Source of the DNA: Acanthochlamys bracteata
Lineage: Eukaryota > Streptophyta > Magnoliopsida > Pandanales > Velloziaceae
Direction: 5' to 3'
Assembly (NCBI GenBank): GCA_019914995.1
Contig: CM034129.1
Location: 1,426,001 to 1,490,000, forward strand
DNA length: 64,000 nt
A model generated the notes under the pieces. That model was not told the origin of the DNA and did not search any database. It saw nothing but the letters and a program-made list of their open reading frames with translations. A program made the translations under genes and the position numbers. This document shows positions 3,852 to 62,572 of this stretch, piece by piece. Position 1 is the stretch's first letter; each line of letters begins with the position of its first letter.

Positions 3852-4001
3852 CTATCATTTTGCCAATGCAAAGCTGGAACATATCAGATGAACCTGTCAT
3901 TTTGCCAATGCAAAGCTATACGAAACCTATCATTTTGTTCACTTCGATTTTCTTTCTATCATTTTGCCAATGCAAAGCTGGAACATATTAGATGAACCTG
4001 T
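3852..4001. repeat. Three-copy ~45-bp imperfect direct repeat
   Basis: The unit ATCATTTTGCCAATGCAAAG, followed by CTGGAACATAT(C/T)AGATGAACCTG, occurs at about 3852-3894 and again at 3957-4001. A shorter version (TCATTTTGCCAATGCAAAGC) lies at 3897-3917. Copies differ at only a few bases, so the duplication is fairly recent. No function is evident. Confidence 0.75.
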
Positions 4002-17362: not shown

Positions 17363-20144
17363 ATGACTCTGGGCTTGGTCAACGCGAATCCGGTTGTTCA
17401 CGCCAAGAAGGAACGTCTCCCTCGCTCCGATGAACTCAACGGGGCCGCCGCCGTTGACGCCCTCGATGTCTTCGGTACTCTCTCCCTCTCTCTCTGCGTA
17501 TTAATCGATTATCGGGTGTACTGTAGTTCCAAATGTCTGCTAACTATGCTCGTTTTCTTATGGTTACTAGATTCTGTGAGGGACATCAGGGATCCGGAGC
17601 ATCCCTACTCCCTCGAGCAGCTCAGTGTCCTCTCTGAAGATTCCATCACTGTCGATGATAAGCTCGAAAGGATTCTGTACTCTCCATGCCCTACTTGATT
17701 TAGATTCTTACGTTCTTCTCTTGCCGCGCAGTCTGTTAGTGAACAATTTTATTGAATTGATTAAGCTAAGATAATAGTTTTTCTAGAAACGATAACTATG
17801 TAGTGATGTTTGCTTTTCCAGAATTCGGTTGAGGAATCAATCGAGATACATTGAGTGTGTGGATTTGAGCAGAATCTATATGAGTAGTGTGTAACGAACG
17901 TTGGATGGACGCATATATTGTAGGCTAACGGGTTGTATCACTATCGCATACTTGTCTTTCTAGTGTGGTAAATTGCTTGGTGGCGTTGAATGTGGGGTTT
18001 TTGATTGCAGATGTTCCAAGCATAGTGTGGGTAGTAATGCTGCTGGATAGGCTTTATGCTTGCATGTCGCTGCAAGCCTTTCTGTATCTTCAGCTGCCTA
18101 AAGAATGAACAAAATGAGAAAACAATTACTTCATCCATTTAGGGTCTATGATTCCTTCTTGTATGCATCTTGTACTATAGAAAGATCTAGCAAGCGTTCT
18201 GTATATACTAGTCATTAATGATCTATCATCATCATCATTAATTCTTGGATAAATTTCTTATAATCAAACTATTGTTGATAATTTCTTCCATGCTTGCAGG
18301 ATAACCTTCACTCCAACTGTCCAGCACTGTACCATGGCAACTGTTATTGGTTTGTGTCTGAGAGTGAAACTAATGCGCAGCTTCCCTCCAAATTACAAGG
18401 TTAGTGTAGAGGCATGCCAATATCTTGAGATTCTCAAAGAATGCTAAAGTTTGTTTTTTTTTGTCAGTTGCGGCATATGAATTACCGGTATTGAGTTTCC
18501 ATTGTCTAGATTCGGTTTAGCTTTGCATCAAGATATAACCATTTTTGTTAAGTCAGTTGCGGCATATGAATTACCAGTATTGAGTTTCCATTATCTAGAT
18601 TCAGTTTAGTTTCGCATCAAAACATAACCATTTTTGTTAAGGATCTTTTTTGCATCCTAAAACCATGACAAAATTGGTCCTTTGCAGTGTCTCGATTCGA
18701 TCTTGCTGACTCTCCTTTCCTGGTTTTTGTGTTCATGTTTATCTTTTTCCCTCAATTTCACCTAATCAGTATGTGTTCTACTAAATGTTTTATTATTCTA
18801 TTAATAACATACTTGATTCCCTCAGTTGACATTTGACTTTTTGAACTACATAGATGACTCCCTTAGCCTGGTAGAATATTCATATGGTCTATATGATACT
18901 TGTGGTTGCCAACTTATAATCTCAGATTGGAATTAGCATAGAAATTCCAAGTTGTGAAATTGTCAGTGGTTAGAAAGTAAAGACTGCAAAGTTATTGGAT
19001 TAGGAGTTAAGCACCTAAGGAGACTAGAGGCATTGGTTGTGTATTGGATGGCTTGAGTGGTTAAAGAAAATGGCCTACTATACGAGTTGCGTAGTTGAAC
19101 TTTGCAATGTTCCTATTGTTATATGTAATGTTGCCATTTTTACATGTGAATGTGGTGAAGTCTTTGATTGTTCAAGCTGCCTAGTAGATGTAATTCATGT
19201 ACAAGTTTTTTCATTCATAAATATATATGCAGGTTGATATCAATGTGTCCCCTGGGTCTCATGCAGATGAAGCATCAGGTTTTTTCCAATAAACCTTATG
19301 GGTTGCGTTGCATGTATTCACACACTGAACTCACAATCAAGTACACACGATAATAATGGTCCCACGTCCTAGAATAGTGATTTCAAGTGTCTTGAGTTAT
19401 TTTAAGACGAGAAACCCCTGAAGACTTAGTAGTGAAACTCATTGTGGTTAGGTTCTGCATTTTAATTTTAGATAAAAGAAAAGAAACAAGCAAATTTTAT
19501 GTTGTAGCTTGTCATTTGAGCCCTAGTCTTGTTTCATACTATGATGGAATTTTCGATAACCTTTGAAAGTGATAAATCTTTACAATCTGCAGTGTGTAAT
19601 CATCATCAATAGTTGGTAATTATGAGCTAGGATGGTCTTGAATTATGAGATCTTGAAATATGAGATCAATACACTTATCAGGCACATATTACTTTATGTT
19701 CATTCTTAGGCAAAAGCATCCCCTACCATATGGTGGGAATTACCTCTGAGAGTAGTGAGATTTCTGACAAGTTTATAAGCTCTTGAAAGGAATAAAGCAA
19801 CAGGCTTTTTGCTCTATATAACTAAGAAGCAGGCAAACCTCATGCAGCTATTCTCTGAATTTATCTTTGTTAGATGTTCATTTCACTTTTCAGGGACTAT
19901 GGTGGAAATTCTTCTTGCCTTGTTCCTGTTCCCTCTAACATTTGCTTTTTGTTCTAGCTTGCATGGGATGCCCACTACTCTAGCTTTCAACTTATGTCTC
20001 ATCACTTTCAAGGGGATTGATTGATTGCAATTCTGATTTGCAGTTAACAAGCAGTTGAATGATAAGGAAAGAGTAGCTGCAGCTCTTGAGAATCCCAATC
20101 TTCGCCAACTTGTAGACGAGTGCCTCCTCTCCAATGAACTGTAA
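17363..20144 (+). CDS. AE7: AE7/MIP18-family cytosolic iron-sulfur assembly protein
   Basis: Homologue of Arabidopsis AE7 (FAM96B/MIP18), a subunit of the CIA targeting complex that hands Fe-S clusters to cytosolic and nuclear proteins such as DNA repair enzymes. Five exons: 17363-17474, 17571-17676, 18300-18399, 19233-19278 and 20044-20144, all phase-consistent, encode about 154 residues, close to the 157 of AE7. The start is [18 protein letters not shown]; the core has [16 protein letters not shown], then [16 protein letters not shown] with the conserved reactive Cys, [11 protein letters not shown] and the ending [17 protein letters not shown]. Two introns are long (about 620-830 bases); intron 3 contains an 89-bp tandem duplication. 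AE7-like paralogues exist in Arabidopsis, so orthology to AE7 itself is likely but not proven. No defects visible. Confidence 0.93.
18463..18640. repeat. 89-bp tandem duplication in AE7 intron 3
   Basis: Two head-to-tail 89-base units (18463-18551 and 18552-18640) both start GTCAGTTGCGGCATATGAAT and end CCATTTTTGTTAA, and differ at fewer than ten positions. They lie within an intron and show no coding or RNA signal. Confidence 0.9.
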
Positions 20145-21192
20145 CGCATGTCATAGTCTTTACCTGTATATATGGAGTTATGGCTCAAATCAAGATAGAG
20201 TTATTGTTGTATTAACTTGTTCCATCTGTTCTTTTAGTTTGGTGATGTGTTTACCTGTTGTCGCTATGTATTAGTGAGTCGTGAAATCAACCTATAGCTG
20301 TCTGTAGGGTCTTGTTCTTGATAAAGAAATACCTGGTTTATTAGAAGTTCGTGAGGATAAGGCAAGACAAGACATGAGCCCATGCGATGTAAACTAATTA
20401 ATTCATGGCCGCCTCAATGAAACAACTTTTTGGTGGTTTATGATTAAAGGTGTATGGACCTGTGGTGGATGTTTCAACACATTAATGTGTTGTGGTGGTG
20501 GATGAAGATCTTCCACAGATCTCCTGTGAAAGTGTTGTGGAAACATACTCTTCCATGTATAATATTGGTGTGACGGGTATAAGAACGTCTTCCACACATG
20601 ACATGCTCTTGAAAGAAATTCCTGTTGTGATTTGGGTCTCTCATTTTTGTGACTGGAGATCCTAATGAATCTTCACTCTTATTCTGGCCCTCTGGGTACC
20701 CTACTTGTAAGTTGTTGAAGTTGCATACCCACGAATTACCACTATTGCTCAGTATTCCTGCACTCTGTTGAGTTTCTCTTGCCTAGGTTTAATATGATTT
20801 ACTTTCGTAAAACTTAGAAAATGGTTATTTTCAACACTTCTGTTGGTGCAGTGATTGCTCCATACACAAAATATCCTTGCGTTGAAATAGGGAATAAAGG
20901 AGAGAACTATAGTCGAGATTTTTAACTTGCTGCAAACAGGGAGATAACGCAAAACTTCTGGAGGTCTTCGTATTCCCATACGTACATGCGTACTGATGAC
21001 AATACACAGTGGAAAGAGACGGTGTCTTTATCTATCTACATCTGTAAAGAAGACTGCACCTTTCTCTTCCTCCCTGGTCTGTACTGTTATAATAAAATTC
21101 TTTCCTTATTCATTCTACATATACACTCCCTCCGATCGATTTTCTTTGCAAAGTCTCAATTTTATTCAGGTGAATTTTTGTTGTCTGCCTAA
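20145..21192. other. 3' flank of AE7-like gene, intergenic
   Basis: No supported gene. Short ORFs here lack family resemblance. Confidence 0.5.
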
Positions 21193-21452
21193 GGGCGTGT
21201 TTACCAAGGAGTAGGAAATAGAGTTTTGGATGAAGTGGAATTTTTAGGAAATAAATTTAAAATATAAAATTAAAAATTAAAAATATTTAATAAAAAATTA
21301 AATTTTATATTAATTATATATTTTTAGTAAGTTTTAAATTTAAATTTTAAAAAATATTTTATTGATAAAATAATTATTTTAATTTTTATATATATTTATG
21401 TGAAATTTGAGTTTAAGGGAAGTGGAGTTAAGGGGTGTTGGTAAACACGCCC
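21193..21452. mobile_element. Tourist-like MITE (260 bp) with perfect 15-bp TIRs
   Basis: The left end GGGCGTGTTTACCAA is the exact reverse complement of the right end TTGGTAAACACGCCC. TAA flanks both sides (21190-21192 and 21453-21455). The core is A/T-rich and non-coding. TIR type, TAA duplication and size fit a PIF/Harbinger-derived Tourist MITE. The perfect ends suggest it is the youngest of the elements in this window. Confidence 0.88.
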
Positions 21453-21774
21453 TAATTCGAAGAGACTTGGAAAAGGTATGTAATTAATGATCAGTTTACT
21501 GCTCTTCGACACGTTTATAACTTCAATTTTCCCTTTTTCTCGACTTTCTAAAAATAATATTTTGAAAGAAGTAAATTTTTTAAAAGTAAATTATAAGTAA
21601 AGAATATAGACTCTTTTTTAGAATTGACCTTTTTACACGGTCAGTTAAATTCGCTGATATTTTGTTTTGTTTCTTATTTTTGATTAGTTGAAAAACTCTT
21701 GCTTTAATAATGTTCTGAAATCTTCACGAAGACTTGCTTTTTTTTCTTTCACTGGTTCCTCTCTCTGTAGGGCT

Positions 21775-47515: not shown

Positions 47516-47546
47516 CGAAAGGCAAGGACAGGAGTTAGAGATAGCA

Positions 47547-48425
47547 ATGGCGGGGAAAATTCCCACCAAAAACTTTTTCAAACGTTTTTCTTCATCTACA
47601 TCTATAAACCCAACCTTCTCCCTTCATCTTCTTCACCTCCCACGACATCCGCCATCTCAGTTTCAGAAACTTCTTCAATTATCTCAATCGCGTTCGGCAA
47701 TGGCTTCCAACAGTTCCGCTGCTGCAGAAGTTCAAGAGCCTTCGTCAAAGATCCGGATGCTCGAATGCAATGGCTCTAATAAGGAAAACTCTGACGGCGC
47801 TGTTCCTCTGAAAGCTCCTCTCCTCTTGGTGAAGAAGCTCTCCCCGCTCGCCGTCTTGCCTAAACGTTCATCTGCTCTCGCTGCCGGCTACGATCTATCC
47901 AGGTTTGTGAAATCTCTTACTCTTATCTTTTGTCTCTGGTTTTAACTATTTAAAATATTTGATGAATGATTTTTTGTGTTGCAGTTCTGTAGAGACCAAA
48001 GTTCCCGCTCGAGGTAAAGCCCTTGTAGCCACGGATCTCAGCATTGCTATTCCTGAGGATACTTACGCTCGAATTGGTAAAACTGCAATTGCTTTATCTC
48101 TAACATTTAGATACTGCTCACAAACTGTTCAATGAAATGCGTTTATGAGTCAAACGCTTTTTCTTTTTTCCTCTTGAAAGCTCCAAGATCTGGATTGACG
48201 TGGAAGCACTCGATCGATGTCGGAGCAGGAGTGATCGATGCTGACTACCGTGGCTCTGTTGGTGTTATTCTGTTCAACCACTCGGATGTGGACTTTGAGG
48301 TGAAGCCTGGTGATCGTATCGCGCAGCTGATCATCGAGAGGATCGTGACGCCGGAGGTTTCTGAGGTCGAGGATTTAGACGAGACTGTGAGGGCTGCCGG
48401 GGGATTTGGCTCAACAGGTGTTTAA
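47547..48425 (+). CDS. DUT1: dUTPase (deoxyuridine triphosphatase), copy 1 with N-terminal extension
   Basis: Hydrolyses dUTP to dUMP and pyrophosphate, preventing uracil incorporation in DNA and feeding dTMP synthesis. Three exons, 47547-47902, 47985-48076 and 48181-48425, give about 230 residues. The five trimeric dUTPase motifs are present: [32 protein letters not shown] (catalytic Asp), [13 protein letters not shown] and [11 protein letters not shown]. The first 51 residues ([19 protein letters not shown] and a Leu/His/Arg-rich stretch without acidic residues) look like a mitochondrial or plastid targeting peptide. An in-frame Met at 47700 ([17 protein letters not shown]) would start a 179-residue cytosolic/nuclear form, close to the length of Arabidopsis DUT1. 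Two products from alternative starts are therefore plausible. A near-identical, shorter, inverted copy lies at 56604-57327. Confidence 0.92.
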
Positions 48426-49337
48426 AATTTTTTTTTAGTTGAATGAAGGATAGGTAGATTTCGAGTACGAGGGTTGCTGATCTTGTCTGCCTGACAAGCT
48501 CTTTAACTTTAAGATTCTAATTAGGAGATATTTTCAATTGATTATGAAATGAATTTTTTTTGAAATGAACAATTTTTTTAAAATGTTTGAGAAAGCTAAA
48601 TAAAAATTTTATTAAAAAATATAAAAAAAATTTGAAATGAAATGAAATTAAAAAGCACTTTCAAATATTAATTTCGTACTATATCATAAATTCTAATTAA
48701 TATCTACCACTTCACTTTTAACTTTTAGCTGTGTTTAGAAATGCTATATCAAGAAAAATTTTAGGAACTTGGGTGTAGTTACATGACGTGAAGGGCTCGA
48801 ACTTTGGAATATGTAATGATAAGAAATGAAATTCTTGTCTTACATAGACACAACAACTACAGTTCCGTTCTTGCTACTTCCAGCAAGCCTCAATTGATCA
48901 TCTACCACTACCATAGAATCACATTCTTGTATAACGTTCTTTCACCTATTAGTTATAAGTAACTCTCCATAGCACATTAGATATCCAGTTAAACACTTCA
49001 ATATAAGCAGAAAATACAAACTTCTCAAACACCACAAGCTCCAGTCTTTGCCATTGCTGGCAGCACAACAGTTTGCAACAAAACATAAACAGCAAACATA
49101 ACCTTACTGGTGATGCTTCCCACCAACATTAAACAAGTATGTGGTATCACCAAGAGAAGCTTTCTCAAATGCATCTCCATCTACGCTACAGGTGTCTTTC
49201 AGCCGAAACTTTTTGGGAAATAAAACAAAGGACAAAGGCCAGTCAAGCACCTTTGAAGACTTTTTCTTCCTCAAGTATTCTAAACAAACTTACTCTGAAA
49301 AGGCTTAACATCTTAGAAGTTCAAAGCAGTAGGTCTC
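48426..49337. other. 3' flank of dUTPase copy 1, a segment shared with the Copia-related region, and U1-70K 3' UTR
   Basis: About 48426-48560 is also found, inverted, after dUTPase copy 2 (56603-56470). About 48805-48992 is repeated, inverted, at 57690-57890 next to the Copia remnant (shared blocks include CAAGCCTCAATTGATCATCT and TAGAATCACATTCTTG). The last 300 bases are probably U1-70K 3' UTR. No ORF supported. Confidence 0.6.
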
Positions 49338-52300
49338 TCAGTGCTGATACTTGTAGTCTTGTTCTTCAATTCCCTCCCCATCTTCAGGGACATATTCTTT
49401 TTGATCATACCGATTCTTATAATCATCAGTCTGCATCTTATCGTAATGCTCATGCCCATAGTACTCATTTTCTGGACGCTCCGATTGGTTGTGATGGCCA
49501 AAGTCCTCCTGGATCTGTGGCTGTTCATAGGGATCATAGTCACGTTCATGGTCATGCTTCATGACCTTATCATACCGTTCACCATGTTCTGCATCCCTAT
49601 CCCTCGTACTTGACTGCTCTCTGTAATGCTTCATCTCACCATGGTCATAACCTGCATCCCTCTCATGACTATATCCTCGCTCTTTCTCATAGCTAGTCTC
49701 ATCGTGGTCCCTGTCCCTATCATAATCCCTATCACGTTCTCTGTCCCTCTCGCGATGCCGATCATGATCTTGGGTGCGGTCACGGTCATAGTCACGTGCA
49801 CGATCCCTGTCCCGATCCCTCTCCTTATCCCTACCGCGGCCGCGATCACGACCTCGATCTCTTTCCCTATCCTTATCATGGCCCCTATCACGGTCTCTAT
49901 CGCGGTGGTGTCTATCTTCTCTAGAATCACGATCTCGTGACCTGTCATGCGAACGTTCATGAGACCTTTCTCGTTCACGATCCCTGTCCTTCGCTCTTTC
50001 TCGAGATTTTTCCCTGATCAAACAAGGACAAATTAGTTCAATGGAAGAGAACCACAGAAACAACTTGTAGATTGTATCTTGCAGTAACAAATGCCATTGT
50101 CTGAAATTTCCTATTTAAATATAACTGCTGGTATTTCAAAACCAACTATCAGCCAGTATTACCTATCATGGCGGTCATCACGCGCCCTTGGCTCCTCCGA
50201 TCTGCGAGGTGCTCCTGATGCAATCTGTTGCTGCTCCCTGTTTAGCCATATAAGAAAATAGTCACTTGTTAACAAAAGAGAAAAGGTAAAACAAATTTGT
50301 ATAAAATCAAATCCAGAGGGTTATATGATGTCTATGCAGATACATAAGAAAGAGGAGCCTAAGGTCACAAAAATGTATGAATGAAGGTAATCAAAGAAAG
50401 AAGGTTAATTAGCACGCTACATAACTACATTGCAAATTACCTTCCAGAATTCTTCTGATTGAGATCTTCGCCTCCAACCCTGGACGAACCAAGCCCACCT
50501 CCTAATCTACGAGGCCGCCAATTAGGAACAGTTCTACCACGCTCAACATCCACAAGGACTCTCCTGCTATCAAGTTTCCTCCCATCAGCTTGTTTATATG
50601 CAGCTGCACCGCAACAAAATCAATATTTTAGCTCTGAAGAAGCAGTCAACTGAATTGCATTCAGTCTGAGCTTACTTTTCATGTCCCTGGTGTGCATATA
50701 CTCGACGAACGCATAACCTCTAGGTTTATTGGTCATCTTGTCAGTAACCAGCTGAACCTGAGAATCTCACAACAGAATAGTTAACATGTAAAAAATAAAA
50801 TAGAAGTAAGAAACCCAAGAGATTAATGAAGCGTAATACTATTTTAAATCCTAAATGGCACGACAGACAGGCACAATGCCTCACTAGCCGTGCTCACCTT
50901 TAAGGTGTAAGGCTTCGCCAGCAGAACGCATCACCGCCATATGAAAAGAGTCGTAGAAAAACTGACGTATGTGGACGATTTACTATTTAACCCCTTACCA
51001 GGGAAATTCTACAAATCTGAAAACTAGTAACTACAAGATACAGAGAATACCAGAGTATCTTCTGAAAAGGGAAGCAAAATTCCAAACTAAGTGTCGATAT
51101 GGATAGCCTGCTAATACCCTGAGATCAGTGATTCAGCAATGGTAAATGAGGGAGAGGAAATAATGACGAAGTAAGTTAAATTAACTCCCTGATCATGGTG
51201 GCAAGTAGGTTGCACCATTGCTTTCTGATAGACCTCAATAAATACAAAAGAACTTGCTTGACAGGTAGGGGAACATCCTCACCAAATTGGACATACATCA
51301 AGCTAATGATTCAAGGGGCTTACCATCTTTGGACATGTGCCACATGATTATTCCTCAGTATAAACAGTTTTGAGTCAGACAGACCTTTTTGTTTACCATG
51401 TATAGATTCATATTTACCTGCCCTTTACTCACTCTGGTGCCGAACATGATGCTCATCCAAAACTCTACCTACATATTAACCATTTTCTACTTTACCTGCC
51501 CTCTCCAATGGCATCCCTAGAGCCTTTTTACTAGCTTCTAGAAACAAAGGATGAAAAACACGATAGAAGTACAAAAAACACGACCTACATTCTTGCTTTA
51601 CAGACCTGTTATGATTGGTCAAAGGCGCCCAGAACTAAGGGTATTCACAGAGCCCTACTATTGCCTACGAATACAAGCAAAAAATGTTAAAATAAGAAGA
51701 CAAACCCATGAGAAAGAAACACTCAACCAAGGCTTCAACTAAGTATGCGATTGAAACATACATACCTAACATGAACCAGGAATACCAGTTCATGCGCCAC
51801 TTTGTTGATCCTCTTACAGGCACTTTTGTCTTATATAAAGTACTTTTAGACAAGGTGAACTTTTAAAGTTTTCGAAGAACATAAAGTTCATTAAAAAAAT
51901 TGAGAGATGTGACCCATAAGTAGGACTTGGTTTTCGTATGAAAAATTAACACAGCCCATACCGCCATGCTGAAATATGCCATTGCCTAACATCTTGTTTA
52001 AATAAAATATGAATATAATAAAATCCTAAATCAAAAACCATGACTTCCCAGCTAAAGTATATACAGAACATAGAATAGCATTTGAAATGATACATTCATG
52101 AAAATATTGCTTCCTCTACCCAGAAGACATGAAGTATAAGATAGCTTCCCTATATCACTTCGTATTATACCAACATCCTTCCCAAATTCAGGTATAACTT
52201 GAGCTCCCAATATCAGAGCTATAATAGAATACTTACCCGCTTTATTGGTCCATAGGCTTCAAACTCCCTCTTGATCCTATGCTCGGTTGTCTCATAACTC

Positions 52301-53763
52301 TGCATTAGCAATGCAAGGTTACCATAAAAGCAGCACATTTAGACTTCCAACAAGAAGAAAAATCAAGGAATATATCTTACAAGTCTTGCCACAAAAAGGG
52401 TCTTGTATGGATCCCCAGTTACATTAGGATCATTAGATGGATCATCTGCATCCAAAAGGAGTAGGATTAGACTACCACATAGATGTGCACATATACAATC
52501 AAGTATATCCTTATGAAAAAGGACAGTACATTTTTTAAGCTCCTCAGCTGCTCTTTCTGCACCCTTTTCAAGTCGTACTTTGTGTATTCTAGCTCTTCTC
52601 TCTGCCTGTATTCAAAACGGGGAACAAAAATGCAGGATATTCAAAATTAGAAATTCCACCCAAGCCTCACAAACACACTACTCCATGCTCATCATGCCGG
52701 AACAAAAGAGTATTATATTTCATACAGACATGTTCAAAAGGAAACAAGAATATTGTTTACAACATTCAAAACAGCAGTCTGGGAAAAGTTATTGGAAAAA
52801 ACTGAAATGACAGGTGACAAGCACTGCCTAAATGTATCTTATTAGTTTAAATTGATCATCAGGAAAACATGATCAAGTAAAGCATTTGCTGACAACATCC
52901 AGCTAAAAAGTTCTGTGACTTCAAAAGCAGCTAAGTTATTCAATGCTTGAAAGAATACAAGAAACCCACAAGAAACAGTAATCAAATCAAGATATTACCG
53001 GAGTCTCTCCCTTCTGGACAGGTGGAGCATATTCAGGGTCTCCAGGTTCAGCAAAGTGGCTCACAAATTGAGCCATCGTAGTGTATGGAGGGCATTTCCT
53101 CTTCTCAGGAGGTGGTTTGTACTCTAATGGAGGACGAGGCTCAAAAAGTTTCAACAGGTTTGCTGTCAAACCAGTTGGATGACTCTGCCCTATCTGCAGA
53201 TGAGGAAATCAAAGTCAACAACCTACCAGCCTAAAACACATAGTCCATAGTTGCACATACATCAATTTCCACTTAAGTTTTTAATAGAAACAAAAGAAAA
53301 ACATGAAAAGAAACACTACGAGTGAAACGATGGCAAGCAATACATTCCAAAGCACTAATATTCACATTTCGCTTAGAATGCATAATGCATTTCTGCGAGC
53401 CAACAATGTTATGGTGTTTACTGAAAGGCATCAGTTAGGCCATATAAAACTAGCTCAAACCATAAAACTACACATTTCATATCACCGACCGGTGCAGATA
53501 TATAGAATAAGTTTCCCCAAATTTTATTTAAAATTGCAGATAATGAACAAACTAATCAAGTGTAAAGCACCGATCAACAAATCGAGAACCAAATTGAAAA
53601 ACATACAGATCTATAGTCTACAAACAGCAGAAGAAGAAACGAATCTATGGAATTAGAAGACTACCATCTTGAGCTGGAGAACGTTGGAGCGGTTCTGGGC
53701 CTTGGTGCGGGCCTGAACAGCCGCATCGCGGTTGCGCATGAAAGTGTCATTGAAGTCCGCCAT
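49338..53763 (-). CDS. U1-70K: U1 small nuclear ribonucleoprotein 70 kDa (intact)
   Basis: U1-70K binds stem-loop I of U1 snRNA and helps define 5' splice sites with SR proteins. Nine exons on the minus strand: 53763-53665, 53193-52999, 52605-52530, 52445-52381, 52299-52237, 50757-50676, 50603-50441, 50237-50163 and 50013-49338, phase-consistent, give about 497 residues. The U1-snRNP70 N-terminal region ([20 protein letters not shown]) is in exon 2. The RRM has RNP2 TLFVARL in exon 4 and RNP1 RGYAFVEY (about 179-186) in exon 6. The C-terminus is a long Arg/Asp/Glu/Ser repeat tract (DRDRDRDR-type), followed by a Tyr/Glu/His-rich end. The intron splitting the RRM (50758-52236, 1,479 bases) is far longer than the others; in Arabidopsis a long RRM intron of this gene is retained in some transcripts to give a truncated protein. 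Stop TGA at 49338-49340. Confidence 0.95.
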
Positions 53764-54357
53764 CACCGGCGGAGGGATTGCGGCGACGATCGACGGAGCA
53801 AAACTCTAGGGTTTTGAGATGGGGTCTTCTCTCTTTTCTCCGCCTGCGATATGTCCGCGAGCGAGACAACACGAAAGAACCTAAGCCAGGTGGGGGGTTT
53901 TCAAGTATTTATCGGCAAAGGAACTCGCGGTAAACCTTGGGCCGGATTAACGAGTACGATCCCGACTCAAATAACGAGCCTGACATAACATCTCTAATCT
54001 GTATTTTCTCAAATTTTTAAATTTAGTTTATAGATGTTTTGTATTCATGGAGCAGGTTTGTGTTTATTTAGTATTAAACAACAACGACTTATTTATTTAT
54101 CAAAAAAATCTAAAAAATAATTTTATATTTATTCTATAAAATTATTCTTTTAATAACTTATTTTTTCAAAACTTATGTTTTAGAAACATAATAGCCATCC
54201 AAAATCAGTGCTCCAAAATTTTTTAATAACCCTCCAAAAATTCAATTTAAAAACATAAATCCCAAGTATGTTTTTTCCACAACAACGCAGACTTCACTAG
54301 TAGAAAGATGGATCATTGCAAAACATTGAGCAGCAGTACAACATCACTATGTTCTCG
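53764..54357. promoter_or_regulatory. U1-70K promoter, also duplicated at 58.95-59.96 kb
   Basis: Includes the 5' leader with CTAGGGTTT (telo-box, minus, 53806-53814) and GGGCC-type site II-like words near 53940. The whole stretch is repeated in the second unit of the tandem duplication, where a further ~460 bases are present. Confidence 0.55.
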
Positions 54358-56402
54358 TTAGGGCAGCCTGTGTTTGTTGCCTCCAGTAGGGTTGATCTCG
54401 CCCGAGAAGATGTCGTCACTGCTGGAAGCTGACGGATGGTGACCGAAATCGGTGCTGTAATCGCCGCTGAACTCAGGACTTGCCAAAGTTACCTTCCTGA
54501 ATCTGTTTATATTTGAAGTGTAAGAGCCTGAGTCGTTGAAGTCGGAACCAGAGCAGAAGAGGATGCTTCCTGGCCGCACAGTCGTTCAGGTCTTCCAGTA
54601 ACACATCGCCCTCCAGAGCTCCCACAATCTGCAATATGTCAAATTTGCTTCTGTGCAAGTATATTCGGCTAAAAGATTATTCGACACAGCGCAAGTACAG
54701 AAGGAACATTTCTGTTGTATGTCAATTACAACGTAAAACTGTGGAGTATTTGTACCTGGCTCATCTTAGGGCGTCTCTTGGCCGATTGTTTGACACAGGC
54801 ATTAGCACAAGCGACCAATCTTGCCATCTCCAATTCATTGTAGTTGTCCAAGCCGTACGTGGACCAGTTCATCATAGCTCCCATCAGCCATACAACGTTG
54901 CATTAGTGGTCTCGCCTGTCCATGCATGATCAAACAAAATTAAGCTCAATATCAGATACTAGACTAGAAGCATGCAGTGGAGGAGCATATCTTGAGGGGC
55001 TCACCCAATCAACCATGCTATCCTCCATAAAATTGTGGGAGGTATCTACAGGACGCTTTCCAGAGATGATTTCTAGCATCATCACATCAAAGGAGAACAC
55101 GTCCGATTTCTCAGTCAACTTGCCACTTGATGCATATTCAGGGGCTAAGTACCTCCGTGCCCATAATCATAAGAATACCAATTCTATGCAGTAATCAAAC
55201 ATCTTTGCCTCTTGTAAACCCCAGAAAATTATATTTTGAACAACATAGAGACACCTACCCAAAGGTTCCCATCACACAAGTAGAAACATGAATATGGTTG
55301 TCTGAAGACAGCTTCGCCAGTCCAAAGTCTGCAACCTGAAAATCCATGTATTTGTTCTTTTTTTAAATGGAATTCCAAAGGACAACAATCTGATCAATGA
55401 GTTGACGTTTAACTTTCTTACCATTGCTTCAAATTTATTGTCCAGAAGAATATTAGCTGATTTGATATCCTGTGAATTATACGAGGATGGCCTTCAAACA
55501 CACATATAGAACACAAATCAATCTTTATAATCGTCAAGCATGCAAGATCCACACAACCACCAAACAGAAGCCATTTGACATTTATATGCACTCACAATCT
55601 TCATGCAAATATGCAATTCCCTTTGCAGCACCTGTGGCGATCTTCAGCCTCGTTGGCCAATCCATAACAGCTAATCCCTTAGCTGGAAAAGGAAAAAGAT
55701 CCAAACAAGCTCAGTATGGTTTTCATCATCGACATGTTTTACTTTGAATTCTAAACTATTAAATCTAATATTTACCATGGAGGTGGTACTCAAGCGTTCG
55801 GTTAGGAACAAAATCGTACACAAGCATTCTCTGAGTTCCAGCAATGCAGTATCCAACAAGCGAGACGAGATGCCTGTGATGAACTCTGCTAATTATATCC
55901 ACCTCCGCCTGAAACTCTCGTTCTCCTTGCCCACTTCCTGCTCGCAACTGCTTCACCGCAATCTCTTTTCCATTAAGCAACACACCTATGAACATACCCA
56001 AACCCACCTTGCCCAAGAAGGTTGGATGGAAAAAACCCCCCCTGTTGCAGCAACAAGCTCTTCATAGGTGAACGTGCTCTTTAATCCTAGCGCCATTGTC
56101 GGTGACGGTGGAGGAAGGACAGGTGCATGCGGGGCTGTGTAAGGCCCACTTGACTCTCAAGCTCTATAGAAGACCGCTGCTACAGAAGACATTCTTACCT
56201 GCATAAACACTCATCCTTTAAAAGATGAAAACAGATCCCGAAAGACTCAATCTTCGAGTATTGGTTCGACTTCATACTTTTAATGTTGAACAAGGGAACA
56301 GAAACTCTTAATAATTTGATCACTGAGTGTTAATTTGGATACCCTTTCGAGCTGAGGTATCTGCGTAGTACCCAATGGAATCCTTGCTCTTCTTCCTCTT
56401 CT
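54358..56402 (-). pseudogene. PERK kinase, truncated and frameshifted copy
   Basis: Copy of the intact PERK gene at 59984-62572, including introns, in the same orientation. Lesions seen against that copy: exon 1 is missing except for its last ~60 bases, being cut at 56402; about 110 bases are deleted inside exon 2 near 56155; a two-base deletion near 55984 precedes the kinase domain; one base is lost in the catalytic-loop exon, breaking HRDIK near 55472; a two-base loss near 54855 disrupts exon 7; another near 54580 disrupts exon 8. GQGGFG has also changed. No functional kinase can result. The left part (3' end) runs into the shared intergenic DNA of the duplication. Confidence 0.92.
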
Positions 56403-56603
56403 AAAAATTAGCTTCTAAAAATAAAGTTAGCTTTCTAAAAAATTTTAAATATTTTTTATTTCCAAAAACAATTTTTAATTTCATAATAATTTTTAAAAAA
56501 ATCTCCTAATTAGAATCTTAAAGTTAAAGAGCTTGTCAAGCAGACAAGATCAGCAACCCTCGTACTCGAAATCTACCTATCCTTCATTCAACTAACAAAA
56601 CAT
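56403..56603. other. Duplication junction and inverted 3' flank of dUTPase
   Basis: At 56402 homology to PERK exon 1 stops. After about 70 A/T-rich bases the sequence becomes the reverse complement of the 3' flank of dUTPase copy 1 (AATCTTAAAGTTAAAGAGCT, then TCGAAATCTACCTATCCTTC). Confidence 0.75.
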
Positions 56604-57327
56604 TTAAACACCTGTTGAACCAAATCCCCCGGCAGCCCTCACAGTCTCGTCTAAATCCTTGACCTCAGAAACCTCCGGCGTCACGATCCTCTCGATGACC
56701 AGCTGCGCGATACGATCACCAGGCTTCACCTCAAAGTCCACATCCGAGTGGTTGAACAGAATAATACCAACAGAGCCACGGTAGTCAGCATCGATCACTC
56801 CTGCTCCGACATCGATCGAGTGCTTCCACGTCAATCCAGATCTTGGAGCTTTCAAAAGAAAAAAAGAAAAGCGTTGACTCATAAACACATTTCATCGAAC
56901 AGGTTGTTAGCAGTACGTAAATGTTAGAGATAAAGCAATTGCATTTTTACCAATTCGAGCGTAAGTATCCTTAGGAATAGCAATGCTGAGATCCGTGGCT
57001 ACAAGGGCTTTTCCTCGAGCGGGAACTTTGGTCTCTACAGAACTGCAACACAAAAAAATCATTCATCAAATATTGAAATAGTTAAAACCATAGACGAAAG
57101 AAAAGAGTGAGAGATTTCACAAACCTGGATAGATCATAGCCGGCAGCGAGAGCAGATGATCGTTTAGGTAAGACCGCGAGCAGGGAGAGCTTCTTCACCA
57201 AGAGGAGAGGAGCTTTCAGAGGAACAGCGCCGTCACAGTTTTCCTTGTGAGAGCCATTGCTTTCGAGCTTACGGATCTTTGACGAAGGCTCTTGAACTTC
57301 AGCAGCAGCGGAACCGTTGGAAGCCAT
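56604..57327 (-). CDS. dUTPase, copy 2, short form lacking the N-terminal extension
   Basis: Three exons, 57327-57125, 57042-56951 and 56848-56604, with the same junctions and phases as copy 1, encode 179 residues. All five motifs are kept: [43 protein letters not shown] and [12 protein letters not shown] count about ten amino-acid differences from the matching part of copy 1, all outside the motif cores or conservative (e.g. Ile to Val in motif 4), and no stop or frameshift. The introns are also very alike, so this is a recent DNA-level duplication, not a retrocopy. Homology to copy 1 stops 37 bases before the ATG, where a Copia LTR begins, so the organelle-type peptide of copy 1 is absent. 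Expression would depend on the LTR or on new sequences; whether it is active cannot be seen. Confidence 0.88.
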
Positions 57328-57364
57328 TGTCGAACACGACTGAGAGAATTGAAGAAGTTTCTGA

Positions 57365-57545
57365 TGATAAAATCTTTCAAATTTAATTTCAATAATTCAA
57401 TAAACTTAGATATATATCTATATATATATTATAATACTAAATAAAATAGAGTCTAAATAAAATATATATATATATATATATCTAAGTTATATCATATAAT
57501 TTTCAAAAAACATATCTAAGATAATTATGTTGACTCATTTCAACA
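57365..57545 (-). mobile_element. Ty1-copia LTR (181 bp), sense to dUTPase copy 2
   Basis: Read on the minus strand it starts TGTTGAAATGAGTC directly after a purine tract (GGAGGAG, the polypurine tract) and ends TTTTATCA, so it has the TG...CA ends of an LTR. It is A/T-rich with (TA)n runs. It is followed after the CA by TCAGAAACTTCTTC, the start of homology with dUTPase copy 1. It thus looks like the 3' LTR of a copia element, placed 37 bases before the copy 2 start codon in the same orientation. Confidence 0.75.
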
Positions 57546-57662
57546 CTCCTCCTCAAGTTGGTACAAAAATATCATCTATGCCCAACTTGTTCAGTGAGTC
57601 CTAAAAAATTCTACTTGATACTCTTTTTGTCAATATGTTTGATAATTGCGCTTCTGAAGTCA
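57546..57662 (-). pseudogene. Copia polyprotein C-terminus (RNase H end), decayed
   Basis: On the minus strand the frame reads TSEAQLSNILTKRVSSRIF, a stop, then DSLNKLGIDDIFVPT and a stop, followed by the polypurine tract. This is the usual end of plant copia RNase H (pattern Q-L-A-D-x-L-T-K ... F-x-D-S-L-x-K-L-G). The in-frame stop and the loss of all upstream pol mean it is a dead fragment. Confidence 0.75.
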
Positions 57663-57689
57663 CAAAATATAACTAAGATAAATCATATA

Positions 57690-57890
57690 ATTGAAGTGTT
57701 TAAGTGGATATCTAATGTGCTATTGAGAGTTACTTATAACTAAAAGGTGAAAGAACGTTATTCAAGAATGTGATTCTATGGTAGCGGTAGATGATCAATT
57801 GAGGCTTGCAGGAAGTAGCAAGAATTGATGTAATTGTAGTTGAGTCTATGTATGACAACAATTGCATTTCTTATCATTTCAAGTGTCGAA
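57690..57890 (-). repeat. Second copy of the 48.8-49.0 kb segment (inverted)
   Basis: Reverse complement of about 48805-48992, with long matching blocks such as AGATGATCAATTGAGGCTTG. Here it lies next to the copia remnant, so the segment may be part of that element or an insertion beside it. Confidence 0.7.
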
Positions 57891-57952
57891 GTTTCGGTGA
57901 GGTTTATACAGCATTGTTATAGATGACTAACGAAAGTTATTGAAAAACAGGA

Positions 57953-58946
57953 GTCTGGGAAAAGTTATTGAAAAGAACTGAAATGACAGGTGACAAGCAC
58001 TGCCTAAATGTATCTTATTAGTTTAAATTGATCACCAGGAAAACATCATAAAATAAAGGATTTGCTGACAACATCCAGCTAAGAAGTTCTGTGACTTCAA
58101 AAGAAGCTAAGTTATTCAATGCTTGAAAGGATACAAGACACAAGAAGCAGTAACCAAATCAAGACATTACCGGAGTCTCTCCCTTCTGGACAGGTTGAGC
58201 ATATTCAGGGTCTCCAGGTTCAGCAAACTGGCTCACAACCTGAGCCATCATAGTGCATGGAGGGCATTTCCTCTTCTCAGGAGGTGGTTTGTACTCTAAT
58301 GGAGGTCGAGGCTCAAAACATTTCAACAGGTTTTCTGCCAAACCAGTTGGATGACACTGCCCTATCTGCAGATAAGGAAATCAAAGTCAACAACCTACCA
58401 GCCTAAAACACATAGTCCAATAGTTGCACATACATCAATTTCCACTTAAGTTTTTAATAGAAACAAAAGAAAACCATGAAAAGAAACACTACAAGTGAAA
58501 CAATGGCAAGCATACATTCCAAAGCACTAATATTCACACTTTTCGCTTAGAATGCATTAACGCATTTCTGCGAGCCAATAATGTTTTCAATGGTGTCTTT
58601 ACTGAGAAAGGTATCAGTAAGGCCATATAAAACTAGCTCAAACCATAAAACTAAACATTTCATAATACCGGCCGGTGCAGATATATCAAATAATTTTGTC
58701 CAAAAATTATTTTAAATTGCAGAAAATGAGCAAACTAATCAAGGATAAAGCGCTGATCAACAAATCGAGACCAAATCGAAAAACATACAGATCTATATCC
58801 TACAAACAGCAGAAGAAGAAACGAATCTATGGAATTAGAGGACTACCATCTTGAGCTTTGAGAACGTTGGAGCGGTTCTGGGGCTTGGTGCGGGCCTGAA
58901 CAACCGCATCGCAATTGCGCATGAAAGTGTCATTGAAGTCCGCCAT
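57953..58946 (-). pseudogene. U1-70K, 5' fragment (exons 1-2 only)
   Basis: Copy of the first two exons, first intron and part of intron 2 of the intact gene. Exon 1 (58946 leftward) starts [11 protein letters not shown] but has an extra base near 58865, so the frame is lost before the donor. Exon 2 (about 58366-58171) is open and close to the original ([20 protein letters not shown]). Homology stops within intron 2 at about 57953, where the duplicated unit begins. No RRM or C-terminal part is present. Confidence 0.92.
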
Positions 58947-59983
58947 CACCGGCGGAGGGATTTCGGCGGCGATTGCCGGAGGAAAACTCTAGGGTTTTGA
59001 GATGGGGTCTTCTCTCTTTTTTCCGCCAGCAATATGTCCAACCGTCCGCGAGCGAGACGGCGAGAAAGAAAGTAAGCGGGGGCCGGGTGTGGTGCTGGGG
59101 TTCAACTATTTATAGGCAGTGGAACTGGCGGTAAACCTTAGGCCGGGCTAACGTGTACGATTTCGACTCAAGTAATGAGCCTGGCCCAACATCTCTAATC
59201 TGTAATTTCTGAAGGTTTTCAATTTAGTTTATAAATGTTTTGTATTCGTGGAGCTGGTTTGTCTTTATTTAGTATTAAACATCAAGGACTAATTATTTAT
59301 CAAAATAAATCTCAAAAATAAATTTGTATTTAATCTATAAATTTATTCTTTTAATAACTTATTTTTTAAAAACTTATGTTTAGAAATTTGCTTTTTCTAT
59401 CAAATAAACAAACCCAATTCGGATGCATGGGTTATCATTTAAATAGAATCGTTTGAAATTGCTCATCATAAAGTGCTTTTTAGTGAATAATTTTTAATAA
59501 AATTTTCTAAGAGAAATTTATCTTTTTTATCCTTTCAAAAGTAAAATTTTGATAAATTTAATAATTCTGTAATGTACACGTTGTATGTATTTTTTAATTT
59601 AAAAAAAATACTATTAAAAAGTTTTTTTCAAATAAAAAGACAAAAAAGAGATGAAATAGCTAGTTAAAATTAATACCACGAGGCGAAAGTTTTACATAGA
59701 TACTTCTAAGATTAATATTATCCGAAAAGTTGAGCTTTCATAAACTACAAAGTACAAACTATGATATGTACGGACATCACCCATAAATTACTCGCTCATT
59801 CACCACATCAAAGTAGCACGTAAAATAAAAAAAGATGCATATATGACCTCAATAGCCCTCCAAAAATTCAATTAACAAACATAAATCCCGAGTATGTTTT
59901 TTCCACAATAACGCAGACTACACTAGTAGAAAGATGGATCATTGCAAAACATTGAGCAGCAGTACAACAGCACTATGAACTCT
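58947..59983. other. Duplicated U1-70K promoter and PERK 3' flank, with a ~460-base unit-specific stretch
   Basis: Matches 53764-54357, except that about 59394-59850 has no counterpart there. This extra stretch is A/T-rich without an ORF, so it is either an insertion here or a deletion in the first unit. Confidence 0.65.
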
Positions 59984-62572
59984 TTAGCGTAGCCTGTGTT
60001 TGTTGCCGCCAGTAGGGTTGATCTCGCCCGAGAAGATGTCGTCACTGCTGGAAGCTGACGGATGGTGACCGAAATCGGTGCTGTAATCGCCGCTGAACTC
60101 AGGACTTGCCAAAGTTACCTTCCTGAATCTGTTCATATTTGAAGTGTAAGAGCCTGAGTCGTTGAAGTCGGAACCAGAGCTGAAGAGGATGCTTCCTGGC
60201 CGCACACCCTCGTTCAGGTCTTCCAGTGACACATCGCCCTCCAGAGCTCTCACAATCTGCAAGATGTCAAAATTGCTTCTGTGTAAGTATATTCGGCTAA
60301 AAGATTATTCGACACAGCGCAAGTACAGAAGGAACATTTCTGTTGTATGTCAATTACAACGTAAAACTGTGGAGTATTTGTACCTGGCTCATCTTAGGGC
60401 GCCTCTTGGCCGATTGTTTGACACAGGCATTAGCACAAGCGACCAATCTTGCCATCTCCAATTCATTGTAGTTGTTCTCAAGCCGTGGGTCGACCAGCTC
60501 ATCATAGCTCCCATCAGCCATACAACGTTGCATTAGTGGTCTCGCCTGTCCATGCATGATTAAACAAAATCAAGCTCAATAGCAGATACTAGACTAGAGG
60601 CATGCAGTGGAGGAGCATATCTTGAGGGGCTCACCCAATCAACCATGCTATCCTCCATAAAATTGTGAGAGGTATCTACAGGTCGCTTTCCAGTGATGAT
60701 TTCTAGCATCATCACACCAAAGGAGAACACGTCCGATTTCTCAGTCAACTTGCCACTTGATGCGTATTCAGGAGCTAAGTACCTACGTGCCCATAATCAT
60801 AAAAATACCAATTCTATGCAGTAATCAAACATCTTTGCCTCTTGTAAATTCCAGAAAATCATATTTTGAACAACATAGAGACACCTACCCAAAGGTTCCC
60901 ATCACACGAGTAGAAACATGAGTATGGTTGTCTGAAGACAGCTTCGCCAGTCCAAAGTCTGCAACCTGAAAGTGAATGCTAAAATTGAATCCATGTATTA
61001 CTTCTCAAACATTTCATTTGTTCTTTTTTTAAATGGAATTCCAAAGGACAACAATCTGATCAATGAGTTGACGTTTAACTTTCTTACCATTGCTTCAAAT
61101 TTATTGTCCAGAAGAATATTAGCTGATTTGATATCCCTGTGAATTATACGAGGATGGCCTTCAAACACACATATAGAACACAAATCAGTCTTTATAATCG
61201 TCAAGCATGCAAGATCCACACAACCACCAAACAGAAGCCATTTGACATTTATATGCACTCACAATCTTCATGCAAATATGCAATTCCCTTTGCAGCACCT
61301 GTGGCGATCTTCAGCCTCGTTGGCCAATCCATAACAGCTAATCCCTTAGCTGGAAAAGGAAAAAGATCCAAACAAGCTCAGTATGGTTTTCATCATCGAC
61401 ATGTTTTACTTTGAATTCTAAACTATTAAATCTAATATTTACCATGGAGGTGGTACTCAAGCGTTCGGTTAGGAACAAAATCGTACACAAGCATTCTCTG
61501 AGTTCCAGCAATGCAGTATCCAACAAGCGAGACGAGATGCCTGTGATGAACTCTGCTAATTATATCCACCTCCGCCTGAAACTCTCGTTCTCCTTGCCCA
61601 CTTCCTGCTCGCAACTGCTTCACCGCAATCTCTTTTCCATTAGGCAACACACCTTTATGAACATACCCAAACCCGCCTTGCCCAAGAAGGTTGGATGGAG
61701 AAAATCCCCCTGTTGCAGCAACAAGCTCTTCATAGGTGAACGTGCTCTTTAATCCTAGCGCCATTGTCGGCGACGGTGGCGGAAGGACAGGCGCATGAGG
61801 GGCTGTGTAAGGCCCACTTGATTCTCCGCTCATTATTGTATGTGGGTTTGGCCTGTTTTGCCATCCGCCACCTGCTGCTGGTGCTGCATGCCCGTGCCTA
61901 TTCTGCCATTTTGGTGCTGGAAGACCGCTGCTATAGAAGACATTCTTACCTGCATAAACACTCATCCTTTAAATGATGAAAACAGATCCCGAAAGACTCA
62001 ATCTTCGAGTATTGGTTCGAATTCATATTTTTAATGTTGAACAAGGGAACAGAAAGTCTTAAGAATTTGATCACTGAGTGTTAATTTGGAATACCTTTTC
62101 GAGCTGAGGTATCTGCGTAGTACCCAATGGAATCCTTGCTCTTCTTCCTCTTCTTGGTGCAACAAACGCAGATGGTTACTATCAAAAACAAGAACGCTGC
62201 GAAGCCCGCACCGATACCAATAGCAACATATTTATCTATATCTTTGCCATGGGCCGGGATTCCAGGAATATTAACCCCATCTGCCTTGGAATCCATTGAC
62301 GGTGACGACGAAGAATATTTATTGTTTGATTGCTGTTGTTGTACTACATCAACATGTGAAGGCGGCGACGGAGATGAAAGCAAAGATGGTGAAGAAGATG
62401 GAGATAATAATGATGGTGACAATGTTATTTTTCTCTGTGAAGGCTGCGGCGGAGACGGTGGTCGTGTTGGAGGGCCGTTTCTTGTTGAAGGAGGAGGTGA
62501 TGAGGTATTTATAGTAGAATGTGAAGTAGGCGGAGCGGGCGGAGATGAGCTCTCCGGCGATGGAGCGCTCAT
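59984..62572 (-). CDS. Proline-rich extensin-like receptor kinase (PERK), intact
   Basis: PERKs are plasma-membrane kinases with a Pro/Ser-rich outer part thought to contact the cell wall. Eight exons on the minus strand: 62572-62095, 61949-61443, 61349-61263, 61158-61088, 60965-60889, 60782-60635, 60545-60384 and 60256-59984, all in phase, give about 600 residues. Residues 1-110 are Pro/Ser-rich without a classical signal peptide, as is usual for PERKs. One membrane segment spans about 115-138 and is followed by basic KKRKKSK. The kinase domain starts near [14 protein letters not shown], with Gly loop GQGGFG, catalytic Lys in IAVKQL (about 270), [23 protein letters not shown] and [18 protein letters not shown]. 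The group closest in wording is PERK4-7, but the member is not decided. A broken tandem copy lies at 54358-56402. Confidence 0.93.

What the first reader, a model, noticed from the sequence alone, without database searches (positions are those of the whole stretch)
52775..62155. Tandem duplication with both breakpoints inside genes, and an inverted third locus at the junction
The segment from U1-70K intron 2 (about 52775) to PERK exon 1 (56402) recurs in direct orientation at about 57953-62155. As expected for a tandem duplication, the intact U1-70K lies left of a PERK copy cut in exon 1, and a U1-70K copy cut in intron 2 lies left of the intact PERK. The join is not clean: 1.55 kb of an inverted dUTPase locus plus copia sequence fills it. 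Such filler taken from a nearby locus on the opposite strand is what template-switching replication repair (FoSTeS/MMBIR) would leave, though several separate events are also possible.
Basis: partly seen in the sequence, partly recalled or inferred. Interest (0 to 1): 0.8.

Follow-up and report, generated by a model that had tools for sequence, protein, structure and literature searches.

The report
Tandem duplication with scrambled inverted filler
A plant chromosome carries an old copying accident in which a stretch covering parts of two genes was duplicated in tandem with pieces of a neighbouring gene pasted backwards into the seam; it is a well-preserved, datable example of a known kind of DNA rearrangement.

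Summary
Confirmed. Window 52768-56402 recurs in direct orientation at 57944-62154, and the seam (56403-57943) holds inverted dUTPase-locus DNA. A homeologous block on contig C6, single-copy as far as searched, aligns straight across both breakpoints, so the left dUTPase, full U1-70K and full PERK are ancestral and the seam is derived. The seam is not one inverted piece: it is two pieces, dUTPase (48599-47663) then its downstream flank (49002-48812), in permuted order. The copia fragment between them ends at a native LTR end on the dUTPase 5'UTR, best read as a later insertion. Non-coding divergence does not differ significantly between dUTPase (7.5%), flank (9.6%) and U1-70K introns (6.8%): no sign of different ages, about one eighth of the homeolog dS. 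PERK looks younger (introns 3.8%; 1 mismatch in a 508-column tract), which I read as gene conversion. Best reading: one local template-switching duplication, a kind described in human genomes, later overlaid by copia insertion and gene conversion. U1-70K and PERK copies are broken; the dUTPase copy keeps introns and an open frame. Mechanism is inferred; structure and ancestry are shown.

The parts
47663..48599 (+). Ancestral dUTPase gene (donor of filler piece 1); exons 47700-47900, 47986-48075, 48183-48422 (splice-spanning bases not counted)
   Evidence: 93.1% inverted match to 56427-57364; C6 homeolog matches 47544-47643 and 47682-48445; Pfam PF00692
48530..48672 (.). AT-rich repeat (MITE-like by eye) in which the donor-side breakpoint of piece 1 falls; ends approximate
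   Evidence: 44 rows besides self in the genome search, 40 of 80 candidates scored; 7 copies aligned, common end near 48672 by eye
48812..49002 (+). dUTPase downstream / U1-70K 3' flank, donor of filler piece 2
   Evidence: 90.2% inverted match to 57690-57881; no other place among the scored rows (40 of 235 candidates scored)
49341..53763 (-). Intact ancestral U1-70K gene (RS-rich C-terminal exon to start codon)
   Evidence: reading frames, PF12220 on exons 1-2, C6 homeolog matches 48975-51563 and 51799-53958, the latter one alignment across 52768
52768..56402 (.). Tandem unit 1: U1-70K intron 2 to 5' end plus PERK cut in exon 1
54225..56402 (-). Truncated PERK copy, pseudogene (frameshifting indels in exons 2, 4, 7 and 8, including a net 83-bp loss in exon 2, relative to unit 2)
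   Evidence: alignment, frames, exon models
55468..55975 (.). Conversion-like tract in unit 1 (partner about 61135-61642): 1 mismatch in 508 aligned columns, plus one 1-bp indel
56403..56426 (.). Seam J1: AT-rich bases with a TTCTAAAAA motif starting at 56399, 56413 and 56433; donor homology weak from here to about 56497
56427..57364 (-). Inverted dUTPase copy (filler piece 1), introns kept, open frame 57327-56607 across three exons
57365..57685 (-). 3' end of a copia-type retrotransposon (end of pol, then a whole LTR beginning near 57545), LTR end on the dUTPase 5'UTR; 5' boundary approximate; the name copia is from motifs I recall, not from a call
   Evidence: 38 other places, lower bound; 18 of these aligned, identity among them falls from 81% to 38% at 57365/57364
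57690..57881 (-). Inverted downstream-flank copy (filler piece 2)
57882..57943 (.). Seam J3: about 50 bp of unknown origin, ending in a 14-nt exact repeat of the adjoining unit 2 start (57933-57946 and 57961-57974)
   Evidence: only itself found in the genome search, no significant local donor, repeat in 0 of 500 shuffles
57944..62154 (.). Tandem unit 2: U1-70K 5' part cut in intron 2 (pseudogene, 1-bp frameshift in exon 1) plus PERK
59387..59850 (.). 464-bp stretch present only in unit 2 (38 bp in unit 1); insertion versus deletion not resolved
59987..62572 (-). Intact ancestral PERK-like receptor kinase, 8 exons
   Evidence: kinase domain; C6 remnant of exon 1 aligned across 62154; the name PERK is recalled

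Best explanation
One replication-based template-switching duplication, after the duplication that made the C6 homeolog. Inferred order: synthesis running through PERK exon 1 stopped at the position of 56402. It switched to the dUTPase locus about 8 kb away on the other strand, inside an AT-rich repeat near 48.6 kb, and copied dUTPase backwards to or past 47663. It jumped back to about 49.0 kb and copied 191 bp, again backwards. It then returned through a short filler to the original strand in U1-70K intron 2 (52768) and re-copied onward through PERK. This gives a tandem duplication whose seam carries two inverted, permuted templates. Later a copia element inserted at the dUTPase copy's 5'UTR and lost its 5' part; the U1-70K and PERK copies decayed; the two PERK copies exchanged sequence by gene conversion. 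Shown: structure, ancestral state, native LTR end, no significant age difference among dUTPase, flank and U1-70K pieces, a conversion-like tract. Inferred: that it was one event, the direction, the polymerase-switch mechanism, the order of the later steps.
For: Duplicated and inverted blocks abut at the seam. Single C6 alignments cover 51799-53958 and 62107-62558, that is both breakpoints, and one dUTPase and one U1-70K were found on C6. Non-coding mismatch: dUTPase 24/319, flank 18/188, U1-70K introns 47/688, PERK 3' side 10/136; Fisher p 0.69 (dUTPase vs U1 introns), 0.19 (dUTPase vs all B non-coding), 0.41 (dUTPase vs flank), 1.0 (flank vs all B non-coding). A later independent insertion landing exactly in the seam would be a coincidence (inference). 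A 14-nt exact repeat of the re-entry sequence lies in the J3 filler, 0 of 500 shuffles. In the passages I saw, PCAWG (PMC7025897) defines 'cycles' of templated insertions as strings that re-replicate a segment of the host chromosome and speaks of 'local n-jumps' when templates are local, and PMC5120786 takes templated insertions with iterative switches as the FoSTeS/MMBIR signature.
Against: Microhomology at the junctions is not readable after 7-10% decay; the junction between the two filler pieces is hidden by copia; the repeat tests at J1 (28 of 500 shuffles) and J2 (155 of 500) are weak or null. Divergence is heterogeneous within blocks: U1-70K 5'UTR/promoter 64/423 against introns 47/688, p=1.2e-5; dUTPase 3' flank 3/104, introns 17/181, AT-rich part 19/70. 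So the clock is rough and 'same age' means 'not distinguishable'. PERK introns outside the tract (21/552) are less diverged than U1 introns (p=0.023), all B non-coding (4.7e-6), dUTPase (0.025) and flank (0.004), while PERK exons outside the tract do not differ from U1 exons (p=0.26) and the PERK 3' side fits either (p=0.44 with B, 0.10 with PERK introns). Gene conversion is my explanation for this, not a separate measurement. B, where I claim no conversion, also has a longest identical run (98) that only 41 of 5000 shuffles reach, so mismatches cluster there too.
Confidence: 0.68

Rival explanations
1. Circular intermediate: the dUTPase locus (47.6-49.0 kb) was excised or copied as an extrachromosomal circle, opened near 48.6-48.8 kb and captured in the seam of a tandem duplication. 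Read on the minus strand the seam is flank then dUTPase, while the donor is dUTPase then flank, in the same direction: the permuted order expected of a reopened circle.
For: Permutation shown; the signature is stated by Takahashi and Innan (PMC7188851, first of four parts of the text seen).
Against: A single cut should leave both sides of the cut point, but 48600-48811 (212 bp) has no detectable counterpart at either end of the insert. The circle's joining point is not visible. A circle alone does not make the tandem duplication.
Confidence: 0.13
2. Several separate events: a simple tandem duplication first, then separate insertions or inversions bringing the dUTPase and flank pieces into the seam.
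For: Two pieces, permuted order and an extra insertion (copia) show that more than one step occurred. Positional order dUTPase, flank, U1-70K 5' part, PERK matches a larger tandem duplication followed by two in-place inversions and a deletion. PERK is less diverged than the rest, which on its face could mean a different age.
Against: Non-coding divergences of dUTPase, flank and U1-70K pieces do not differ significantly; all boundaries coincide with the seam; more breaks are needed than for template switching; B and C are collinear in both units.
Confidence: 0.15
3. Assembly artefact: unmerged haplotypes or a chimeric contig.
For: No reads were available to exclude it; the assembly has 557 contigs.
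Against: 7-10% substitution plus 11 gap events in B non-coding; frameshifts found in the duplicate U1-70K and PERK units and not in the ancestral ones; a copia fragment inside the seam; no N in the window.
Confidence: 0.03
4. Retrocopy or transduction: the dUTPase copy came in with the copia element through RNA.
For: Copia LTR abuts the dUTPase 5'UTR in the same orientation.
Against: Both introns are present with GT/AG ends and the genomic 3' flank is copied.
Confidence: 0.01

Closest known systems
Local n-jumps and cycles of templated insertions (PCAWG, PMC7025897; 12 of 17 matching passages seen)
   Same: Host segment re-replicated with a string of extra templates, inverted junctions frequent; a pattern with small (<1 kb) templates is described.
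   Different: Old and present in a reference plant genome rather than a tumour; overlaid by copia insertion and gene conversion; ancestral state read from a homeolog rather than a matched normal.
FoSTeS/MMBIR complex duplications with long templated insertions (PMC5120786; 9 passages seen)
   Same: Copy-number gain, long templated insertions copied from nearby, iterative switches.
   Different: Microhomology could not be tested here; no triplication of the host segment.
eccDNA-mediated duplication in human segmental duplications (PMC7188851; first of four parts seen)
   Same: Permuted order of two blocks in the copy, same relative direction.
   Different: A 212-bp block is missing at the presumed cut; the copy carries an open-frame gene, whereas that paper says its cases seem not to have made new coding gene copies; a tandem duplication is attached.

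Membership tests
Template-switching duplication (local n-jump / cycle of templated insertions) | A host segment is present twice in direct orientation around the seam | tested here: met
Template-switching duplication (local n-jump / cycle of templated insertions) | Seam filled by extra copies of other loci, donor left in place | tested here: met
   donor position matches C6
Template-switching duplication (local n-jump / cycle of templated insertions) | All pieces formed at one time | tested here: inconclusive
   dUTPase, flank and U1-70K part not distinguishable; PERK introns significantly lower, read as conversion
Template-switching duplication (local n-jump / cycle of templated insertions) | Short microhomology or small templated inserts at junctions | tested here: inconclusive
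   14-nt repeat at J3 (0 of 500 shuffles), J1 borderline (28 of 500), J2 nothing (155 of 500)
eccDNA-mediated duplication | Permuted block order, same direction, relative to donor | tested here: met
eccDNA-mediated duplication | Single cut point: both insert ends adjoin in the donor | tested here: not met
   48600-48811 missing; no significant trace in the J3 filler (score reached by 99 of 200 shuffles) and none clear at J1
Retrocopied gene | Introns absent | tested here: not met
   both introns present
LTR retrotransposon insertion (copia fragment in seam) | Native LTR end against host sequence | tested here: met
   18 of 38 other places aligned; identity among the 18 is 0.81 at 57370-57365 and 0.38 at 57364-57355; less sharp by eye in L024, L025, L026 and L031
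LTR retrotransposon insertion (copia fragment in seam) | Target-site duplication on both sides | not testable with these tools
   5' part of the element is gone
Functional dUTPase | dUTPase family match, open frame | tested here: met
   PF00692, E 2.2e-39; residues 5-177 of 177 match the solved dUTPase 2pc5, E 1.2e-68
Functional dUTPase | Purifying selection on the copy | tested here: inconclusive
   pair dN/dS 0.37; copy branch 8 assigned changes, 7 non-synonymous and 1 synonymous, 6 further changes unassigned

The most novel reading that the evidence does not exclude
The seam came through a circular or re-invaded dUTPase template and created, in one step, an intron-bearing extra dUTPase gene that lost its own promoter and is now driven by a copia LTR fused to its 5'UTR, while the flanking tandem copies died and keep exchanging sequence with the live PERK gene.
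Probability: 0.12. Interest if true: 0.5.

Novelty: new member of a known kind. Interest (0 to 1): 0.32.

Why it matters
In the listing (13 papers, titles and abstract starts seen), duplications with templated insertions are treated mostly as recent events in human disease and cancer. Here an old germline one in a plant is read nearly base by base, with a homeologous block giving the state before the event and several non-coding blocks giving its age. It also shows the later fate of the parts: two copies broken, one gene copy still open, and, if my reading is right, gene conversion making one part of a single event look younger than the rest. That last point warns against dating duplications from one segment.

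Tried and rejected
Rejected: simple inverted insertion of one dUTPase block (the two pieces are permuted); retrocopy (introns kept); the 212-bp donor gap being a post-duplication insertion (the AT-rich repeat seems to begin within the shared flank with a trace of it in the copy, by eye, and the C6 spacer is of similar size: 530 bp in the window, 675 bp in C6); copia as a template taken up in the event (native LTR end), although a donor allele that already carried the element is not excluded.

Led nowhere: origin of the roughly 50-bp J3 filler; insertion versus deletion at 59387-59850; selection on the dUTPase copy (too few changes). My first self-BLAST filter wrongly hid most pairs; repeated correctly (a tblastx step in that script was run but its hits were not printed or used). 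A guess at the plant family from chromosome number was dropped. One search (papers on dUTPase with LTR retrotransposons) listed five papers, none on point from title and abstract start.

Paper searches that ran. I make no claim that such a locus is absent from print. Papers opened: PMC7025897, PMC5120786 and PMC7496488 (passages only), PMC7188851 (first of four parts).

Full report
THE OBSERVATION. The window is C4:1426001-1490000 of a 195.5-Mb, 557-contig genome. Self-comparison gives five pairs in the region. B, 52768-54186 with 57944-59386, C, 54225-56158 with 59851-61826, and D, 56169-56402 with 61920-62154, are direct. A, 47663-48599 with 57364-56427, and A', 48812-49002 with 57881-57690, are inverted. 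Exon models put the left breakpoint in U1-70K intron 2 (exon 2 ends at 52999) and the right one in PERK exon 1 (62096-62572). Gene names: dUTPase, U1-70K N-terminus and a protein kinase are given by Pfam; PERK, copia and MITE are names I recall from sequence features.

Read left to right, the seam is PERK exon 1, a short AT-rich stretch, inverted A, copia, inverted A', about 50 bp of unknown origin, then U1-70K intron 2. An inversion of the donor as one block would give A' first and then A; the order is the reverse. The donor end of A lies in an AT-rich repeat (44 rows besides self; 20 rows besides self and donor for the copy side; 7 and 6 loci aligned). The copia part matches 38 other places, a lower bound because 40 of 235 candidates were scored. 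I aligned 18 of the 38. Identity among these 18 is 0.89 at window columns 57380-57371 and 0.81 at 57370-57365, then 0.38 at 57364-57355 and 0.32 at 57354-57345, and 57364 is within about 3 bases of where donor homology of the dUTPase 5'UTR starts. This is a native LTR end, as an integrase leaves it; by eye it is less sharp in L024, L025, L026 and L031. The most economical reading is that copia inserted into the dUTPase copy after the duplication and then lost its 5' part, although a donor allele that already carried it is not excluded.

ANCESTRAL STATE. C6:9300314-9325787 is a homeologous block. It aligns to window 47544-47643 and 47682-48445 (dUTPase and upstream), 48975-51563 and 51799-53958 (U1-70K), and 62107-62558 and onward (PERK exon 1 and beyond) in the same order and orientation; two weak off-diagonal matches (window 21186-21455 and 65417-65497) are outside this order. 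The 51799-53958 and 62107-62558 alignments each cover one of the two breakpoints. One dUTPase and one U1-70K were found on C6. So the left dUTPase, full U1-70K and full PERK are ancestral, and the seam is derived. The C6 PERK is itself a remnant of exon 1, so it cannot date the PERK part.

AGE. In dUTPase, copy against donor has dS 0.069 and dN 0.026; donor and copy against C6 have dS 0.57 and 0.54 (splice-spanning codons left out). The event is thus about one eighth as old as the homeologs in dS. Non-coding mismatch: dUTPase 24/319, A' 18/188, U1-70K introns 47/688, all B non-coding 111/1111, PERK 3' side 10/136. The four Fisher tests among dUTPase, A' and B give p 0.19 to 1. Against a uniform clock: the U1-70K promoter side is 64/423 (p=1.2e-5 against its introns), the dUTPase 3' flank 3/104 and introns 17/181, and the AT-rich repeat part, which I set aside from the dUTPase total, 19/70.

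PERK LOOKS YOUNGER. Introns outside the tract are 21/552, inside it 1/196; exons are 41/984 and 0/312. Introns outside the tract differ from U1 introns (p=0.023), all B non-coding (4.7e-6), dUTPase (0.025) and A' (0.004); exons outside it do not differ from U1 exons (p=0.26), and the 136 columns at the PERK 3' side (7.4%) fit B (p=0.44) or PERK introns (p=0.10). The longest identical run, 454 columns, was reached in 0 of 20000 shuffles of the 2177 columns. As a caution, B also shows clustering: its longest run of 98 was reached by only 41 of 5000 shuffles. Because B and C are one collinear unit apart from a 464-bp length difference, I read the pattern as gene conversion between the PERK copies, the last tract being recent, and not as a second duplication. 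The unit 1 PERK is broken by frameshifts and a net 83-bp loss in exon 2; the direction of conversion was not tested.

THE PARTS NOW. U1-70K copy: truncated, with a 1-bp frameshift in exon 1. Of its 17 exon differences C6 assigns 13 to the copy and 3 to the original, with 1 unclear, in 294 columns. dUTPase copy: three exons, both introns, open frame, Pfam dUTPase, residues 5-177 matching the solved dUTPase 2pc5. Of its 19 differences C6 assigns 8 to the copy and 5 to the original, with 6 unclear. Eight to 14 changes is fewer than the roughly 20 expected if neutral at half the dUTPase non-coding divergence (P 0.002 for 8, 0.11 for 14) and the pair's dN/dS is 0.37; but 7 of the 8 are non-synonymous, against 2 of 5 on the donor branch (Fisher p 0.22), and an open frame survives neutral simulation 6 to 65% of the time depending on settings. 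Whether it is kept by selection is open. It has about 34 bp of its own 5'UTR and no donor upstream sequence; the copia LTR lies upstream in the same sense. LTR-driven expression is possible and untested.

MECHANISM. Template switching in replication repair explains a re-copied host segment with two short opposite-strand templates in the seam and a return to the host strand. PCAWG (passages) calls such strings cycles when they re-replicate a host segment, and local n-jumps when all templates are local; PMC5120786 (passages) treats iterative templated insertions as the mark of FoSTeS/MMBIR. Small-scale support: a 14-nt exact repeat of the re-entry sequence in the J3 filler (0 of 500 shuffles) and a thrice-repeated TTCTAAAAA at J1 (longest repeat borderline, 28 of 500); J2 shows nothing (155 of 500). 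The chief rival is a circular intermediate, whose permuted order (PMC7188851, first of four parts seen) is met, but whose single cut point is not: 212 bp are missing.

VERDICT. Real, well preserved, and of a known kind. Interest is moderate for its completeness and for the warning that one event can show two apparent ages.

Noticed in passing
C6:9304841-9305997 (loci L051, L052): The homeologous PERK on C6 is reduced to exon 1 and upstream sequence; no kinase exon was found in the 40 kb of C6 searched (tblastn, E up to 1e-3). About 570 bp of AT-rich sequence sits where the kinase exons should be, part of it similar to window 21186-21455.
   Followed up: partly
59387-59850: 464 bp present only in unit 2 between the U1-70K promoter and the PERK 3' end, with weak similarity (68-73%) to 7 other places. 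Divergence between the units stays at 7-8% for some 130-190 bp past it and then drops near 54.4 kb.
   Followed up: partly
48530-48672: AT-rich MITE-like repeat family with many diverged copies, end motif near ACTTTCAAA by eye.
   Followed up: partly
57403-57488: AT-rich near-palindrome inside the copia LTR (arms 31 nt, 94% complementary).
   Followed up: no
18454-18641 and 3852-4001: Short direct repeats elsewhere in the window: a 99-bp pair 89.9% alike, overlapping by 10 bp, and a 46-bp pair 97.8% alike.
   Followed up: no
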